Below, piece after piece: positions 6,380-21,331 of a DNA stretch of 32,110 bases. The position numbers were made by a program, and so were the translations under genes. The stretch covers positions 1 to 32,110 of the forward strand of contig JAGGYQ010000075.1 of the NCBI GenBank assembly GCA_021162425.1. The letters are read 5' to 3'. The notes beneath the pieces were generated by a model, which made no database searches, had not been told where the DNA came from, and worked only from the letters and a program-made list of their open reading frames with translations. Each line of letters opens with the position of its first letter. The stretch's first letter is position 1. The stretch comes from Candidatus Aenigmatarchaeota archaeon (GTDB lineage: Archaea; Aenigmatarchaeota; Aenigmatarchaeia; QMZP01; QMZT01).

Positions 6380-7273
6380 ATGATTATGCCGTACATCATC
6401 ACGAACCCGAAGAGGTACAGAGGAGCAATAATACTCGACCACGACGGTGTGATAGTGAAGAATAGGTCTACCACACTCCTCGCTGAAAATTATGATGCGG
6501 ACCCGAACGTGTTTTTGGAGAGGATGATCGAGGAATACAGGGGACTTGATATCAAAGGCTACCTTTCCTCGTTTCTCGAGAAGAGGAATTTGAAAAAACT
6601 GGAAAACCTTGGGCAGCTCGGAGCGTTCATAACTGATCTGAGACATGTTTACGTAAAGGACGAGGAAAAATTCGGGAGGAAGGACACAGTCCGCTGGAAA
6701 AACGCGATTCTTCAGGGACTCGAGATAGGCAAATTGGTTGATATAATGAAGAATAAAGCGAAGAGGACGCCGGGTTTGAAGGAGGCGGTTGAGGAAGCGA
6801 AGGAAAATGAATATATCATCACCATATTCTCCAACAGCATCCAGCCCGTTATAGACGTAAGCGTGAAGATGAATAACATAGATTACGGAAAAGCGAACGG
6901 TGTGTGGATAGAGGAGCCCGAAGGGATGAAAAGACCGTACATTCCCCTTCTGGATCTCGAGTCTTATGAGTGTAAACTCACAGGGGAGGTCATAAAGATA
7001 AAGAACAACAAACTCATAAAGGAATTCCTGGAGAAGAACAACATAGGGCTGAATAATGTGATAGTTGTTGATGACACCACAAAAGATGAGATTGGTCTGG
7101 AGATTATGAAGGAGGGAGGCATATACCTCGGCTTCTGCCCGCCCGGAGGTCTATACAGTCAGGAGTACGCGGAGGAATTCAGAAGGAAAAACATACCCGT
7201 AATAACAGAGGACAACCTGGGGATAGTGGGCGAGGTGACGAAAAACAGGCAGATTATCGAACATCTGCGTTAG
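6380..7273 (+). CDS. HAD-superfamily hydrolase
   Basis: From ATG at 6380: AIILDHDGVIV (motif I), TIFSNS (motif II), VIVVDDTTKDEIG (motif IV). The ORF-track extension to 6134 is antisense to IPK. Confidence 0.8.
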   Translation: MIMPYIITNPKRYRGAIILDHDGVIVKNRSTTLLAENYDADPNVFLERMIEEYRGLDIKGYLSSFLEKRNLKKLENLGQLGAFITDLRHVYVKDEEKFGRKDTVRWKNAILQGLEIGKLVDIMKNKAKRTPGLKEAVEEAKENEYIITIFSNSIQPVIDVSVKMNNIDYGKANGVWIEEPEGMKRPYIPLLDLESYECKLTGEVIKIKNNKLIKEFLEKNNIGLNNVIVVDDTTKDEIGLEIMKEGGIYLGFCPPGGLYSQEYAEEFRRKNIPVITEDNLGIVGEVTKNRQIIEHLR

Positions 7274-8119: not shown

Positions 8120-8852
8120 AGTATCCTGCGATTTCGGACACATCCCTGAATATATAGTCAGGATTTTCCTTTTCGAGAAATCTTTTAGTTCCCATCCCGC
8201 ACAAGACAGCGATTGATACGCATCCTGCCTTCTTGGCAGACCTTATATCTATTTCCGTGTCCCCCACAAACGCCGATTCTTTTGGCGGGATATTTATGTG
8301 TTTGCACGCCTTTACTATACCGCCCGCCTTGTCTGCATACGCCTCTCCTATCACGACCTCGAAAAAATCACCTACATTTTCCTCCAGCCATTTCCTTGTG
8401 AATTCCGCTTTCGTCACCGTTACAGCCCCTATCTTATAACCTTTCCTGTGAAGAACCTTTGCGCCCCTCACAGATGGTTCTATCGTCTTCATGAGATGTT
8501 TTGATCGGTAAAAGATGGATTTTACATGTCCGGAAAGTTTGTCTAGGAATTCTTGGTCGCACGTGTATTTCTTCTTCAGGGAATTAACAAAACTTACAGG
8601 ATTGTTTCTATCCAAAATCTCCTCCACACTCCTGTTATCTCTGATTATATAGAACAACGCCTCTGCGAGCTGGGGGAAATCGTTGAACTCCTTGAAGGCC
8701 ATGAGATGCCATGTTTCACTCGGGGAAAACGGGAATGAAAGTCCGTATTTTTCGAATGCCTCCCTCAGGGCGAAATTTATGGCTCTGGACGAATCCCTAA
8801 ACACACCACCAACATCGAAAATAAACGCCTTTATCTTACTCAATCTCCACAC
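8103..8852 (-). CDS. HAD-superfamily phosphatase (phosphoglycolate phosphatase-like)
   Basis: KAFIFDVGGVFRDSS, GAVTVT, FVGDTEIDIRSAKKAGC; 17-nt convergent overlap with the upstream + HAD gene. Confidence 0.85.
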   Translation of the reverse strand: MWRLSKIKAFIFDVGGVFRDSSRAINFALREAFEKYGLSFPFSPSETWHLMAFKEFNDFPQLAEALFYIIRDNRSVEEILDRNNPVSFVNSLKKKYTCDQEFLDKLSGHVKSIFYRSKHLMKTIEPSVRGAKVLHRKGYKIGAVTVTKAEFTRKWLEENVGDFFEVVIGEAYADKAGGIVKACKHINIPPKESAFVGDTEIDIRSAKKAGCVSIAVLCGMGTKRFLEKENPDYIFRDVSEIAGYFRSVR

Positions 8853-10023
8853 CCCTCTGTTTAAGCAAACTTATCACATCTGGTGTTATGATTTCCTCTC
8901 TTTCGGAAAGGTCAAGTTTTCTCGGCTCTCCCATGGGCTCGGCGATGTACACAGGGTAATCCTTTCCCGAATTCCTGATAAATTTCTCCACCTCTTCCTT
9001 CACGCTTTCTGCATCCTTCCCGTTGGTCAGTATCGCGACCGAAGGACCGGTGTCCATCGTGAAGTATGCTGTCAGTCCGAGTTCCCTTCTCAGGAGAACG
9101 ACCTTCCTCGCTATGTCAAGTGAGAATGGCTCCCAGTTGAAGAAGCCATCTCCTGTTACAAGCAGGTGGAACAGATTCAGGGCATCATTTTCCGCATGCC
9201 TCCCTATACCCTCAATATCATTCTTTCGTATACACTCCATGAGGTCCATCACATTCCCCGCCTTCGAAAGCGCCCAGTACTTGTACAGGGGGGATTTGAC
9301 CGCAGCCTTGTGAGCGGATTCTGTTTTGAACATCGCTGGTATGGGAACCACCACGAGTTTTATATCCACGTCCTTATCGATCCTTACCGCGTAGCTGTCC
9401 TCCGATCGTATTCCGGGATGGGAGAACCAAACTGAAAACCCTCCGGCAGCCGATGATGTTCCTGACCCCGAGAGAAATCTGGCAAGAACGCTCAGGAACC
9501 TGTTATTCCCGGAGACTTCAGGGAGGACGGATTCGACGAGCGCCTTCGCAACCGCCCCGCTCGCTGAGGCCGATAGGCCCAAGCCCTTCCCCTTGGCAGG
9601 GACCTTTGGTATGTGTCTCGACACGACCACACATTTCGTTCTTATCCCTGTCATCTCGCGGAAAACGTTCAAAATATTGTTGAATCTTTTGAGTTCCTTC
9701 CCTTCCGCGGGCCTGTCCCCGAATATCACCACGTCATCTTTCAAAGACTTATCGAATCTTATGTACGTCTTCGTTCTGAACGAATCGTTCGTGAGTTTCA
9801 GGGAAGGGAAGTACGCTATTCTTTTCGCGCTATCCACCATTCCGAGGTATTTCTCTATCCCGAGAATGGGGTTCGCCTCGACGAGTGCTTCGCCCTCCAC
9901 ATCATCCTTTCTCGGAATCTTGGGCCATTCTTCCTCCTTGAAAACATGGGAAAGAACCCATTCTTTAACTTCATTATCTCCTTTCTCAAGTTTCTTCATT
10001 TCGTCCTGGCTGAATTCCACCAT
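8836..10023 (-). CDS. GHMP-superfamily mevalonate-(di/bis)phosphate decarboxylase-like protein
   Basis: EANPILGIEKYLG, GKGLGLSASASGAVAKAL, SGSGTSSAAGGFSVW, AYFTMDTGPSVAIL (MDD-like D-x-GP motif). Confidence 0.85.
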   Translation of the reverse strand: MVEFSQDEMKKLEKGDNEVKEWVLSHVFKEEEWPKIPRKDDVEGEALVEANPILGIEKYLGMVDSAKRIAYFPSLKLTNDSFRTKTYIRFDKSLKDDVVIFGDRPAEGKELKRFNNILNVFREMTGIRTKCVVVSRHIPKVPAKGKGLGLSASASGAVAKALVESVLPEVSGNNRFLSVLARFLSGSGTSSAAGGFSVWFSHPGIRSEDSYAVRIDKDVDIKLVVVPIPAMFKTESAHKAAVKSPLYKYWALSKAGNVMDLMECIRKNDIEGIGRHAENDALNLFHLLVTGDGFFNWEPFSLDIARKVVLLRRELGLTAYFTMDTGPSVAILTNGKDAESVKEEVEKFIRNSGKDYPVYIAEPMGEPRKLDLSEREEIITPDVISLLKQRGVEIE

Positions 10024-10039
10024 AATATCACCTCTATGT

Positions 10040-10942
10040 TCACTTCTTATCAGGATTCAGGGACCTCTCCTCCATGACCCTTTTTATCTTCTCTATGTTC
10101 TCTGCTGACATGTCTTTGGTCTCTATTATCCTTTCGATCTTTTCGAATATGATGTTCATTATCTTCTCATACGCTTCTTTCATGTTATCACTCGGTATTA
10201 CAGGGACCCCGACCTTTTTCGCATCCTCGCACTGGACATCCTGCATCATCCTGTATTTCTCCAGAGCCGGTATCAAACGCTGCGAATTTCCCTTGAGATG
10301 AGAAATGCGGTCCCTTATTTCAATTCTTCTCCTCCACTCCTCCATGGAATCCACTCTTAATACGATGGGTATGACGCTGGGGTGATTCAGGATGTTTGAA
10401 TCGTATTGCGAGGGGAGGAAGTGAAGGTATTCTATGACCATGGATTCACCATCCCTTATTCCCCTGTCCGCAACTATCCTCTCCATCAGATTGTTCATTA
10501 TTTTCGCCTGCAGGTAGAAACCCTTCACTATGTTTTCTTCCGTTTCCTTCCCGTCCCCTACGAACTGCCATGCCCCGTAAACCGAGGTGAAGAATTCGGG
10601 ATGTTCTTCCTTACTTATGAGTTCCCTGTAGGATGCTCGTATCGCATCACCACCCATCACATCCCCTATACCGAACGCCGTCGCCACCTCCCTCGCGAGG
10701 CTGGTCTTCCCTGCACCGGGCATCCCTGAAATAATGGGAATGAGAGGAAGTTTTATTTCGCCTGCAAAAACCCCATCCTTGTACGTTTTGAAGAGATTGT
10801 ATCTTTTCAGATATTTTTCTCCAAAATCCCTTAATTTGGTTTCAACTTCCTCCGTGCTTTTACAGGAGGATAGTATTTCTCCTACCCCTTTCAACCCGAG
10901 ACCTGTTGAGAGTAATAAGGAGTTTTTATCCGAGTGTATCAT
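10040..10942 (-). CDS. P-loop kinase related to 2-phosphoglycerate kinase; candidate mevalonate-3-phosphate 5-kinase
   Basis: IIPxISGMPGAGKTSLA P-loop region (PIISGMPGAGKTSLA), GGDAIRASYRELIS, TSVYGAWQFVGDG, GFYLQAKIMNNLMERIV, VIEYLHFLPSQY. Placement between two GHMP genes supports the role. Confidence 0.7.
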   Translation of the reverse strand: MIHSDKNSLLLSTGLGLKGVGEILSSCKSTEEVETKLRDFGEKYLKRYNLFKTYKDGVFAGEIKLPLIPIISGMPGAGKTSLAREVATAFGIGDVMGGDAIRASYRELISKEEHPEFFTSVYGAWQFVGDGKETEENIVKGFYLQAKIMNNLMERIVADRGIRDGESMVIEYLHFLPSQYDSNILNHPSVIPIVLRVDSMEEWRRRIEIRDRISHLKGNSQRLIPALEKYRMMQDVQCEDAKKVGVPVIPSDNMKEAYEKIMNIIFEKIERIIETKDMSAENIEKIKRVMEERSLNPDKK

Positions 10943-10954
10943 TTTATCCCCTCC

Positions 10955-11920
10955 TTATTTAACGATCTTCGCCCCGCTCGCCACTTTGTACTCCACCGGT
11001 TTGTAGCCCCTCTTTATCAGTTCTTTCTTGACCTTGGGGGCGTCCTTCCCCCAAGAGAAAACATTTATAACCTTCCCGCCACCAGCAGTCCAATAACATG
11101 ACAGTCCCTTCGCCCGTATCTCCTCCACGTCTATACACGCTGCCATCATTTCCTTCTTCCGGCACCTCAAACCGAATCCGGACGATTCTATCAGGTAGTG
11201 GGCATTTGCGCAGTTTTCCTCTGCCACGGAGAATACGATGTCCCAGTCTTTGTGAAGTAAACCCTCTTTTATCTTTGCTATCCAAACAGGTATCATCTTC
11301 AGCCTGTATTCATAGAACGGATTGCTTCTCGTTGCATGGAATATCTCCTCTGCGGTAACTCTTGTGGGATAATCAAAGGTCAGAGCGAAAATTTTCAGGT
11401 TCTTCAGATCGTTCTCATCTGCTATAAGCTTCCCGTAGATCTTTGGATAGCCGTCAACGTTCAGTTCGTTCAACCCCCCGTATAACGCTCTCACGGAAGA
11501 TTCGGACAGCATCATTGAAATTTCAGCCAGCCTGTCCCTGCTCATATGGGTTTCGAAGAGGTCGTCAAGTGCGACCACCAGGGCAGCGGCACCTGCATCA
11601 CTCGCTCCGGAATATATCTTGTAGTTTCTCGAGTCTATTTTCAGACCGACGTTCTTCACTCCAGCCTCCCTCTTGAATATATCAACAATTCTGTAAACAT
11701 CCCTCAGTTTCTCCTTTTCGATGGGTTTACCATCAACGTAAAATGTTATATCGTTCGAATCCCCCACAACCTCGACCCTAGTTTCCGTTCTCGTCTCTTC
11801 TTTCAGATCCGTTACAGCCAAGCCCATGGTGTTATGTAGAGGGATCCTATCTGGATGGACAGAAGAAACGAAAACTATGGGTATGGTTGGATATGCGACA
11901 GCAACACTTTCCCTCTTCAT
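10955..11920 (-). CDS. Mevalonate-3-kinase-like GHMP/MDD-fold protein
   Basis: AYPTIPIVFVSSV..RIPLHNTMGLAVTD, YSGASDAGAAALV, SESSVRALYGGLNE, FALTFDYPTRVTAEEIFHATRSNPFYEYRLK; resembles remembered Thermoplasma Ta1305 blocks. The catalytic Asp of decarboxylases is absent (SCYWTAGGGKVINV). Confidence 0.75.
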   Translation of the reverse strand: MKRESVAVAYPTIPIVFVSSVHPDRIPLHNTMGLAVTDLKEETRTETRVEVVGDSNDITFYVDGKPIEKEKLRDVYRIVDIFKREAGVKNVGLKIDSRNYKIYSGASDAGAAALVVALDDLFETHMSRDRLAEISMMLSESSVRALYGGLNELNVDGYPKIYGKLIADENDLKNLKIFALTFDYPTRVTAEEIFHATRSNPFYEYRLKMIPVWIAKIKEGLLHKDWDIVFSVAEENCANAHYLIESSGFGLRCRKKEMMAACIDVEEIRAKGLSCYWTAGGGKVINVFSWGKDAPKVKKELIKRGYKPVEYKVASGAKIVK

Positions 11921-19374: not shown

Positions 19375-19508
19375 TGGGACGGGTGGGATTTCCAACATAA
19401 GGGAGCCTTCCCCTCCCTTATCCTTTCCGAGCCAGCGATGTTTCAAATTTTGAACCCACGACACCCAGGTCTTCAGCCTGGCGCTCTCCCGGGCTGAGCT
19501 ACCGTCCC
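19375..19508 (-). tRNA. tRNA-Phe(GAA) with 60-nt intron in the T-loop
   Basis: GGGACGG TA GCTC-AGCCCGGGA-GAGC G CCAGG-CTGAAGA-CCTGG GTGTC GTGGG-TTCAAA[60 nt]T-CCCAC CCGTCCC A; all arms pair once the insert is removed. Confidence 0.9.
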
Positions 19509-19860: not shown

Positions 19861-19880
19861 CATGGGGTTAGCTCCCCATG
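19861..19880. other. Hairpin downstream of tRNA-Asn
   Basis: CATGGGG-TTAGCT-CCCCATG, 7-bp perfect stem, 14 nt beyond the tRNA 3' end. Confidence 0.5.
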
Positions 19881-19894
19881 CCATATCTTGTTCA

Positions 19895-20046
19895 CGTCCC
19901 GGGCCGGAGTGATGCACGAAGCCCCATCCGGAGCAAACAGCCAATTGAAATTCAAGCCATGCTTCGAACCGGCGACCTTTCGGTTTCCGCGATTCTTAAC
20001 AGCCGAACGCTCTATAGCGACTGAAGCACCGCTGAGCTACCGGGAC
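19895..20046 (-). tRNA. tRNA-Asn(GTT) with insertions in D-loop, anticodon loop and T-loop
   Basis: GTCCCGG TA GCTC-AGCGGT[14]A-GAGC G TTCGG-CTGTTA[12]A-CCGAA AGGTC GCCGG-TTCGAA[54]T-CCGGC CCGGGAC G; removing the inserts gives a canonical 72-nt tRNA-Asn. Confidence 0.88.
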
Positions 20047-20094
20047 ATGTAATAGTTATAAACATTTTATAAATAAAAATTTTAACCTATGGCA

Positions 20095-20237
20095 GAGCGT
20101 GTCTAAAAATAACTCTGTTTCCTTCCCTCTTCGTCAAAATCGGTATGCTGGAAAAATAAAGTCCATACGAAATCCCCCTCGCCGAGACATTTTCCCAAAT
20201 GAAAATCAACAAACTGCGGGAATTGTTAGACACGCCC
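20095..20237. mobile_element. MITE-like element (A), 143 bp
   Basis: Ends GAGCGTGTCTAAAAAT / ATTGTTAGACACGCCC (near-perfect TIRs); perfect 10-bp direct repeat ACCTATGGCA at 20085-20094 and 20238-20247. Confidence 0.75.
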
Positions 20238-20239
20238 AC

Positions 20240-21331
20240 CTATGGCAAGAAGTCACCATTCTTTATCTTCTCTGGGAGATATTTTTCTGATATGAACTTT
20301 ATACCTTTCGAGGACAAGGCTTCAAGTTCGAGTTTATACCCAACTTTTAGCATATGCCTCAACTCTTTCTCCCACTCTTTCGGTTTAAACCATATATAAT
20401 TTAACAATTCTTTTATCCTTTTCTCATCTCCCTTGTTCAGTTTGATGGTTACGTTCTTAGGTATGTTAAACTTCTCGACGTCCATCGTTGTTAGACCAAC
20501 AAACTTTGCATCAGGTGTCCCCAGACGGTCAGAAAGGAAAGAAAGATTGATTGAACCCTGTTTTATGACCGAATATATGTAATATCCCCATGGATCGCTG
20601 TCAGTTAGGACGTATATAGGAAGACCAAGCTCTGTGTGTAACCTGTTTATGAGTCTTCTAGCTCCTCTTGCAGGTTGACCTTTCCCAGTCACTATCAAAC
20701 AGTTCTGCTTTTTCCAGAACTTGTCCTCGTTCAATCGCTGCCATACAGCATCTTTCTCTATTACAAGGACGTAATCGGCCCTTACATTCTCGAATTTTAT
20801 AATCTCTTCCTCTACATTGCTTGGTATTGCCCACCCAGATGAACCCATTTTCGCGCAATTTATTCTATCTCCTGCATCATTTATTATAATGTTCCCAGCA
20901 AGATAGCCTTTTCTATCAGCTATCAGATGAAGCTTTTCTCGGAGCGTATCCAAGGCTGCTTCAAGGTCTTCCACCACAGGGTCTGACTCACTTTGGTCCT
21001 CAAACGTGTTCTCATGTGTTCCAGGAATCGTTCGTTTCAATGCGTAGTAGAGATCTCTTATCGAGGTCGTGACACCTTGCTCTATTATCTTCTTGCATTC
21101 AGCTGCAACGAGCAGAGTTTGCATGAATTTTTTTGTGTGTGCAATGTTCAGGTAATACCTCTGGCTGGTTTTAGTTCCCAGTCTGATGAGTTTTCTCTTC
21201 TCGTCGAAGTATATGTTCGAGAGTGACCTGATGGGAATCTCTATCTTCGGATTCTCTTTTTTCTTTATCTGCTCCAGCACATTCAGACCCAGCTTCCTCA
21301 GCTTCTCCACTTCTTTTGACTTCATTTTCAT
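20240..21331 (-). CDS. top6A: DNA topoisomerase VI subunit A
   Basis: IEIPIRSLSNIYFDEKR, SIRDLYYALKRT (catalytic Tyr), VIEKDAVWQRL, TGKGQPARGARRLINRL, DSDPWGYYIY. Confidence 0.97.
   Translation of the reverse strand: MKMKSKEVEKLRKLGLNVLEQIKKKENPKIEIPIRSLSNIYFDEKRKLIRLGTKTSQRYYLNIAHTKKFMQTLLVAAECKKIIEQGVTTSIRDLYYALKRTIPGTHENTFEDQSESDPVVEDLEAALDTLREKLHLIADRKGYLAGNIIINDAGDRINCAKMGSSGWAIPSNVEEEIIKFENVRADYVLVIEKDAVWQRLNEDKFWKKQNCLIVTGKGQPARGARRLINRLHTELGLPIYVLTDSDPWGYYIYSVIKQGSINLSFLSDRLGTPDAKFVGLTTMDVEKFNIPKNVTIKLNKGDEKRIKELLNYIWFKPKEWEKELRHMLKVGYKLELEALSSKGIKFISEKYLPEKIKNGDFLP

What the first reader, a model, noticed from the sequence alone, without database searches (positions are those of the whole stretch)
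19895..20046. tRNA-Asn(GTT) interrupted three times: D-loop, anticodon loop and T-loop
Seen: removing 14 nt (GCTTCAGTCGCTAT), 12 nt (AGAATCGCGGAA) and 54 nt gives a perfect tRNA-Asn. For the first two, 4-bp helices plus 3-nt bulges form (AGCG/CGCT with GT|G and AT|A; CTGT/GCGG with TA|A and AA|A), and cutting after bulge nt 2 yields the exact mature loops, as expected for the archaeal splicing endonuclease. Known: multi-intron tRNAs are mainly reported from Thermoproteales; the gene content here does not suggest that group.
Basis: partly seen in the sequence, partly recalled or inferred. Interest (0 to 1): 0.8.

Follow-up and report, generated by a model that had tools for sequence, protein, structure and literature searches.

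The report
Asparagine tRNA gene with three introns
In a tiny uncultivated archaeon (Aenigmatarchaeota), the only copy found of the gene for the asparagine-carrying tRNA is cut in three places by introns, and most other tRNA genes of this genome are cut in similar ways, some by identical introns that seem to have spread from gene to gene; multi-intron tRNAs were known from a few other archaea, so this adds a new lineage and a clear case of intron spreading.

Summary
Window 20046-19895 (minus strand) is a tRNA-Asn(GTT) gene interrupted at 20/21 (14 nt), 37/38 (12 nt) and 59/60 (54 nt). Aligning an intact tRNA-Asn from a related species, with introns allowed, scores 81, against at most 40 in 300 shuffles. 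The first two introns form a relaxed bulge-helix motif. The third does not form the canonical 4-bp helix; it is the weakest of 42 introns tested in this genome. No intact tRNA-Asn is in the assembly (92.6% complete).
The host belongs to Aenigmatarchaeota, not Thermoproteales. It encodes an ARMAN-2-like epsilon2-type splicing endonuclease and RtcB. At least 27 of 31 tRNA genes read here are interrupted, with 46 introns; five genes carry three. In relatives the same tRNA-Asn gene beside topoisomerase VI carries other introns or none, so introns turn over quickly.
The 14-nt D-loop intron is identical in tRNA-Asn and tRNA-Tyr. A T-loop intron family sits in at least seven tRNA genes. Neither was found in the relatives searched (109 and 40 genomes).
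Multi-intron tRNAs, epsilon2 enzymes and intron transposition are each known elsewhere: a new member of a known kind. Splicing is inferred; no RNA data.

The parts
20028..20046 (-). tRNA-Asn exon 1 (acceptor 5' strand, D stem 5' strand, first part of D loop, to position 20)
   Evidence: sequence
20014..20027 (-). intron 1, 14 nt, position 20/21 (D loop), GCTTCAGTCGCTAT; central helix AGCG/CGCT 4/4, D stem as outer helix; identical to the D-loop intron of tRNA-Tyr at G000:C20:3929-3942
19997..20013 (-). exon 2 (end of D arm, anticodon stem 5' strand, anticodon GTT, A37)
19985..19996 (-). intron 2, 12 nt, canonical position 37/38, AGAATCGCGGAA; central helix CTGT/GCGG 4/4 with two G-U pairs
19963..19984 (-). 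exon 3 (anticodon stem 3' strand, variable loop, T stem 5' strand, T loop to position 59)
19909..19962 (-). intron 3, 54 nt, position 59/60 (T loop); predicted fold T stem - 3x3 internal loop - GA/UC - A.A mismatch - GCAUG/CGUGC; no canonical 4-bp central helix (1/4)
19895..19908 (-). exon 4 (T60, T stem 3' strand, acceptor 3' strand, discriminator G73)
20065..20073 (-). TTTATAAAA, TATA-like element 19-27 nt upstream of the tRNA 5' end
   Evidence: sequence, (match by eye; function inferred)
19375..19508 (-). neighbouring tRNA-Phe(GAA) gene with a 60-nt T-loop intron (19448-19389) of the T-loop intron family
20243..21331 (-). topoisomerase VI subunit A, upstream neighbour; tRNA-Asn follows it in many relatives

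Best explanation
This is the tRNA-Asn(GTT) gene of an Aenigmatarchaeota archaeon. It is transcribed as one precursor (inferred). The precursor's D, anticodon and T stems act as outer helices (shown by pairing) for three separate introns at 20/21, 37/38 and 59/60. A dimeric epsilon2-type endonuclease of the ARMAN-2 kind cuts each one (gene shown, activity inferred) and RtcB ligates the exons (gene shown, activity inferred). The introns are recent and mobile on an evolutionary scale: the D-loop intron has been copied between tRNA-Asn, tRNA-Tyr and tRNA-Ala(GGC), probably by recombination through their near-identical D-arm sequences (copying inferred from sequence identity).
For: Exons reconstruct an exact tRNA-Asn, far above chance. 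Central helices are 4/4 for introns 1 and 2. The intron-bearing cloverleaf folds at -55.0 against the free minimum of -56.6 kcal/mol, and the two are nearly equal at 60 C. Over 42 introns of the genome, 29 have a full central helix, against 4.4 +/- 2.0 (maximum 9) when introns are shuffled and refined in the same way. EndA is epsilon2-type; RtcB is present. No intact tRNA-Asn in the assembly. The orthologous tRNA-Asn beside Top6A has no intron (L027, L052) or different introns in relatives. The identical 14-nt intron is in tRNA-Tyr at the same position, and 13/14 of it ends the tRNA-Ala(GGC) D-loop intron.
Against: No RNA evidence. Intron 3 forms no canonical BHB (1/4 central pairs). The unconstrained minimum-energy fold of the precursor is not the cloverleaf. 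The MAG is 92.6% complete, so an intact tRNA-Asn could lie on missing sequence.
Confidence: 0.9

Rival explanations
1. A tRNA-Asn pseudogene broken by insertions, with an intact copy on unsampled sequence.
For: The MAG is in 75 contigs and 92.6% complete; intron 3 has no canonical motif.
Against: All four exons are intact, with every stem pair kept. 27 of 31 tRNA genes read here are interrupted in the same way and cannot all be pseudogenes. Introns 1 and 2 are flanked by splicing helices. No second tRNA-Asn was found.
Confidence: 0.05
2. Two real introns (D loop, anticodon loop), while the 54-nt T-loop insert is removed in another way, at other boundaries, or is retained.
For: Intron 3 is the only one of the 42 introns tested with as few as 1/4 central pairs.
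Against: The 59/60 position is used by introns in more than ten other tRNA genes of this genome and in orthologous tRNA-Asn of three relatives. Exact removal restores TTCGAAT and a 5-bp T stem. ARMAN-2-type EndA accepts relaxed motifs (PMC6379350, PMC12397907).
Confidence: 0.05
3. Assembly or binning artefact.
For: Metagenome-assembled genome.
Against: The gene lies inside a 32-kb contig in conserved synteny with topoisomerase VI, and relatives have tRNA-Asn at the same place. Similar introns occur on many contigs.
Confidence: 0.01

Closest known systems
Multi-intron tRNA genes of Thermoproteales (Sugahara 2008; intron transposition, Fujishima 2010; cited in PMC4033280 and PMC4090602)
   Same: Two or three BHB-type introns per tRNA at canonical and non-canonical sites; similar introns shared between different tRNA genes.
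   Different: Different phylum. The literature describes alpha-beta heterotetramer EndA there; here EndA is a single epsilon-type chain.
ARMAN-1/2 (Micrarchaeota) multi-intron tRNAs and epsilon2 EndA (PMC4033280, PMC6379350, PMC12397907)
   Same: Relaxed BHB/BHL introns at several positions; epsilon2 EndA with the same ASL Y-K and recognition residues.
   Different: Here the lineage is Aenigmatarchaeota, and most genomes searched in its order hold a near-full-length epsilon-type EndA.
Asgard Atabeyarchaeia and Freyarchaeia (PMC11291895)
   Same: Over 90% of tRNA genes with introns, over half with several, often non-canonical.
   Different: Unrelated lineage; sharing of introns between tRNA genes was not seen in the passages read.
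Caldiarchaeum subterraneum tRNA genes (PMC3293823)
   Same: Multi-intron tRNAs with introns in the D, V and T arms; proposed intron gain by recombination.
   Different: The model there involves an integrase-bearing mobile element; no integrase was seen beside this tRNA.

Membership tests
Archaeal BHB-type tRNA intron | Removal restores a complete cloverleaf tRNA | tested here: met
   ARAGORN tRNA-Asn(gtt) on the spliced sequence; template score 81 vs at most 40 in shuffles
Archaeal BHB-type tRNA intron | Bulge-helix-bulge or relaxed motif at the junctions | tested here: inconclusive
   Introns 1 and 2: central helix 4/4, relaxed form; intron 3: 1/4
Archaeal BHB-type tRNA intron | Splicing endonuclease and RtcB ligase encoded | tested here: met
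   EndA, RtcB
Archaeal BHB-type tRNA intron | Excision shown in RNA | not testable with these tools
   No RNA data
epsilon2-type EndA | Single chain of about 390-400 aa with three units matching ARMAN-2 end to end | tested here: met
   phmmer residues 3-400 to 4fz2/9w2k 2-387, E = 7.8e-104
epsilon2-type EndA | ASL Y160/K161, catalytic Y236/H251/K282, R275 and W384 | tested here: met
   Conserved in all 12 aligned homologues
epsilon2-type EndA | Homodimer with broad substrate specificity | not testable with these tools
   Needs biochemistry
Thermoproteales-type intron transposition | Near-identical introns in different tRNA genes | tested here: met
   14/14 identity Asn-Tyr; T-loop family with a 43-nt identical core
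Group I or group II intron | Catalytic core recognised by Rfam models, or intron-encoded protein | tested here: not met
   No Rfam match in the window at gathering score or near the gene up to E = 10; inserts of 12-54 nt are too short

The most novel reading that the evidence does not exclude
This genome is undergoing a recent invasion of tRNA genes by small families of BHB introns. They spread from tRNA to tRNA through the near-identical D-arm and T-arm exon sequences. One T-loop family also grows by tandem duplication of a hairpin unit of about 40 nt. The spread is tolerated because an entire order of Aenigmatarchaeota carries a permissive epsilon-type EndA.
Probability: 0.55. Interest if true: 0.68.

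Novelty: new member of a known kind. Interest (0 to 1): 0.5.

Why it matters
It adds an archaeal order in which tRNA genes are heavily fragmented and which carries the broad-specificity epsilon-type EndA known so far mainly from ARMAN. It gives direct sequence traces (identical introns in different tRNA genes, an intron-free orthologue in a relative) for testing how tRNA introns move. It also warns that standard tRNA finders badly undercount tRNAs in such genomes, which distorts completeness and codon-usage claims for DPANN MAGs.

Tried and rejected
Rfam and ARAGORN on the unspliced gene: no hit. Several anchor loci (L124, L126-L128, L130-L136, L138-L142, L207) gave only background scores and were dropped. 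The Ser(GCT) locus L014 has at least two inserts whose boundaries I could not settle; it is left out of the counts. A first census run without an intron length limit gave spurious multi-kb introns and was filtered. Group I/II introns and a split (trans-spliced) tRNA were considered: no catalytic core, and all exons are co-linear within 152 nt. Sequence matches of the 54-nt intron to other introns of the genome: none at E <= 1e-3. A Top6A tree leaves the position of this species among its closest relatives unresolved, so gains and losses could not be counted. Literature searches for Aenigmarchaeota/Aenigmatarchaeota tRNA introns found no dedicated report, but the library lacks most subscription journals.

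Full report
OBSERVATION. The gene lies on the minus strand, 20046-19895. Reading 5' to 3': exon GTCCCGGTAGCTCAGCGGT, intron 1 GCTTCAGTCGCTAT, exon AGAGCGTTCGGCTGTTA, intron 2 AGAATCGCGGAA, exon ACCGAAAGGTCGCCGGTTCGAA, intron 3 (54 nt), exon TCCGGCCCGGGACG. The spliced 72-mer is called tRNA-Asn(gtt) by ARAGORN. In standard numbering the introns are at 20/21, 37/38 and 59/60. As a test against chance I aligned an intact tRNA-Asn from another species (G012), allowing introns: the locus scores 81, 300 dinucleotide shuffles average 22.2 (sd 4.2, maximum 40), and the rest of the window reaches 37, in the tile with the tRNA-Phe gene.

SPLICING MOTIFS. Introns 1 and 2 have a full 4-bp central helix next to the D stem and the anticodon stem; the 5' bulge lies in the intron loop, so these are relaxed bulge-helix-loop forms. 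Intron 3 has 1 of 4 central pairs. Its predicted fold keeps the T stem, a 3x3 internal loop that contains the 3' site, a 2-bp GA/UC helix and a 5-bp helix inside the intron. The precursor fold that keeps the cloverleaf and introns 1 and 2 in their motifs has -55.0 kcal/mol against a free minimum of -56.6, and -29.4 against -29.6 at 60 C.

HOST. Topoisomerase VI A relatives of highest identity (79-81%) are Candidatus Aenigmatarchaeota. The genome (954 kb, 92.6% complete) encodes a 400-aa EndA matching ARMAN-2 epsilon2 EndA from end to end (E = 7.8e-104), with ASL Y160-K161, the catalytic Y, H, K, and R275 and W384 conserved in 12 of 12 homologues, and RtcB. Most genomes of the same order hold a near-full-length homologue; other orders of the class show only weak matches, mostly to shorter proteins.

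THE GENOME'S OTHER tRNA GENES. An Rfam tRNA search finds few intact genes, against 41 matches in a genome of the same class. With introns allowed, and using tRNA templates taken mostly from that genome, I read 31 tRNA genes of G000 with 46 introns; 27 genes are interrupted (L014 left out, Tyr and Val(CAC) added by hand). Five carry three introns: Asn, Tyr, Thr(GGT), Lys(TTT) and Gly(TCC). A few templates (generic Asp, His, Cys, and some spliced or own-genome tRNAs) were written by hand and served only for alignment. The census is a lower bound, because only stretches around tRNA signals were fetched. Across 42 introns the central helix is complete in 29, against 4.4 +/- 2.0 (maximum 9 in 150 runs) when intron letters are shuffled and boundaries refined in the same way. 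This supports the intron reading for the genome as a whole without any RNA data.

INTRON FAMILIES. The 14-nt D-loop intron of tRNA-Asn is identical in tRNA-Tyr at the same position, inside an identical D-arm context, and 13 of its 14 nt end the longer D-loop intron of tRNA-Ala(GGC). An exact search in 109 relatives found no copy. A T-loop intron family at 59/60 occurs in Phe (this window), His, Ala(CGC), Val(CAC), Gly(CCC), Gly(TCC), Leu(CAA) and at one contig edge. The 43-nt core is identical in several of these and is tandemly repeated in some; none of 40 relatives has a match. The third intron of tRNA-Asn belongs to neither family.

THE SAME GENE IN RELATIVES. tRNA-Asn follows topoisomerase VI A in many relatives. 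It is intron-free in L027 and L052, has a T-loop intron with a canonical motif in L028 and L047, an anticodon-loop intron in L029 and L042, an anticodon-stem intron in L039, a 48/49 intron in L036, and two introns in L044 and L048. No relative examined has three. The tree does not resolve the order of events.

MECHANISM. Shown: intact exons, positions, helices, enzymes encoded, shared introns. Inferred: transcription as one precursor (a TATA-like TTTATAAAA lies 19-27 nt upstream), cutting by the epsilon-type EndA, ligation by RtcB, and spread of introns by recombination through shared tRNA arms.

COMPARISON WITH WHAT IS KNOWN. [quoted passage not shown] Intron transposition is known in Thermoproteales (Fujishima 2010, as described in PMC4033280 and PMC4090602). 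Relaxed motifs and epsilon2 enzymes are described in PMC6379350 and PMC12397907. I found no report for Aenigmatarchaeota in the library searched. I file this as a new member of a known kind; the shared-intron families are the more interesting part.

Noticed in passing
19375-19508 (minus strand): tRNA-Phe(GAA) with a 60-nt T-loop intron of a family found in at least seven tRNA genes of the genome.
   Followed up: yes
L012, L016, L212, L213, L217 (G000): T-loop introns expanded by tandem copies of a hairpin unit of about 40 nt (GGTTGATAAGGGAGGGGAAGGCTCCCTTATG and variants).
   Followed up: partly
20097-20110 and 20222-20235: 14-nt inverted repeat (93%) 111 nt apart between topoisomerase VI A and tRNA-Asn; looks like the ends of a small non-coding mobile element. 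The GCGTGTCTAA end motif also occurs once in L009 of the same genome.
   Followed up: partly
19861-19880: Palindromic hairpin CATGGGGTTAGCTCCCCATG about 15 nt downstream of the tRNA-Asn 3' end; possible terminator or processing signal.
   Followed up: no
L014 (G000:C52, about 6589-6679): A tRNA-Ser(GCT)-like gene with an insert in the variable arm made of three near-identical units of about 38 nt, and a further T-loop insert; boundaries not settled.
   Followed up: partly
L039, L044, L048 (relatives): A tRNA-Asn intron inside the 5' strand of the anticodon stem, similar in three species; an inherited non-canonical intron.
   Followed up: partly
G061 (one contig, 90% complete): Only 8 tRNA matches by the Rfam model in a single-contig genome; its tRNA genes may be even more fragmented.
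   Followed up: no
order-level relatives: Several genomes carry both a full-length epsilon-type EndA and a second protein of about 180-240 aa matching the EndA catalytic domain.
   Followed up: no
8836-11920 (minus strand): Two diphosphomevalonate-decarboxylase-like proteins close together, hinting at an unusual mevalonate pathway branch.
   Followed up: no
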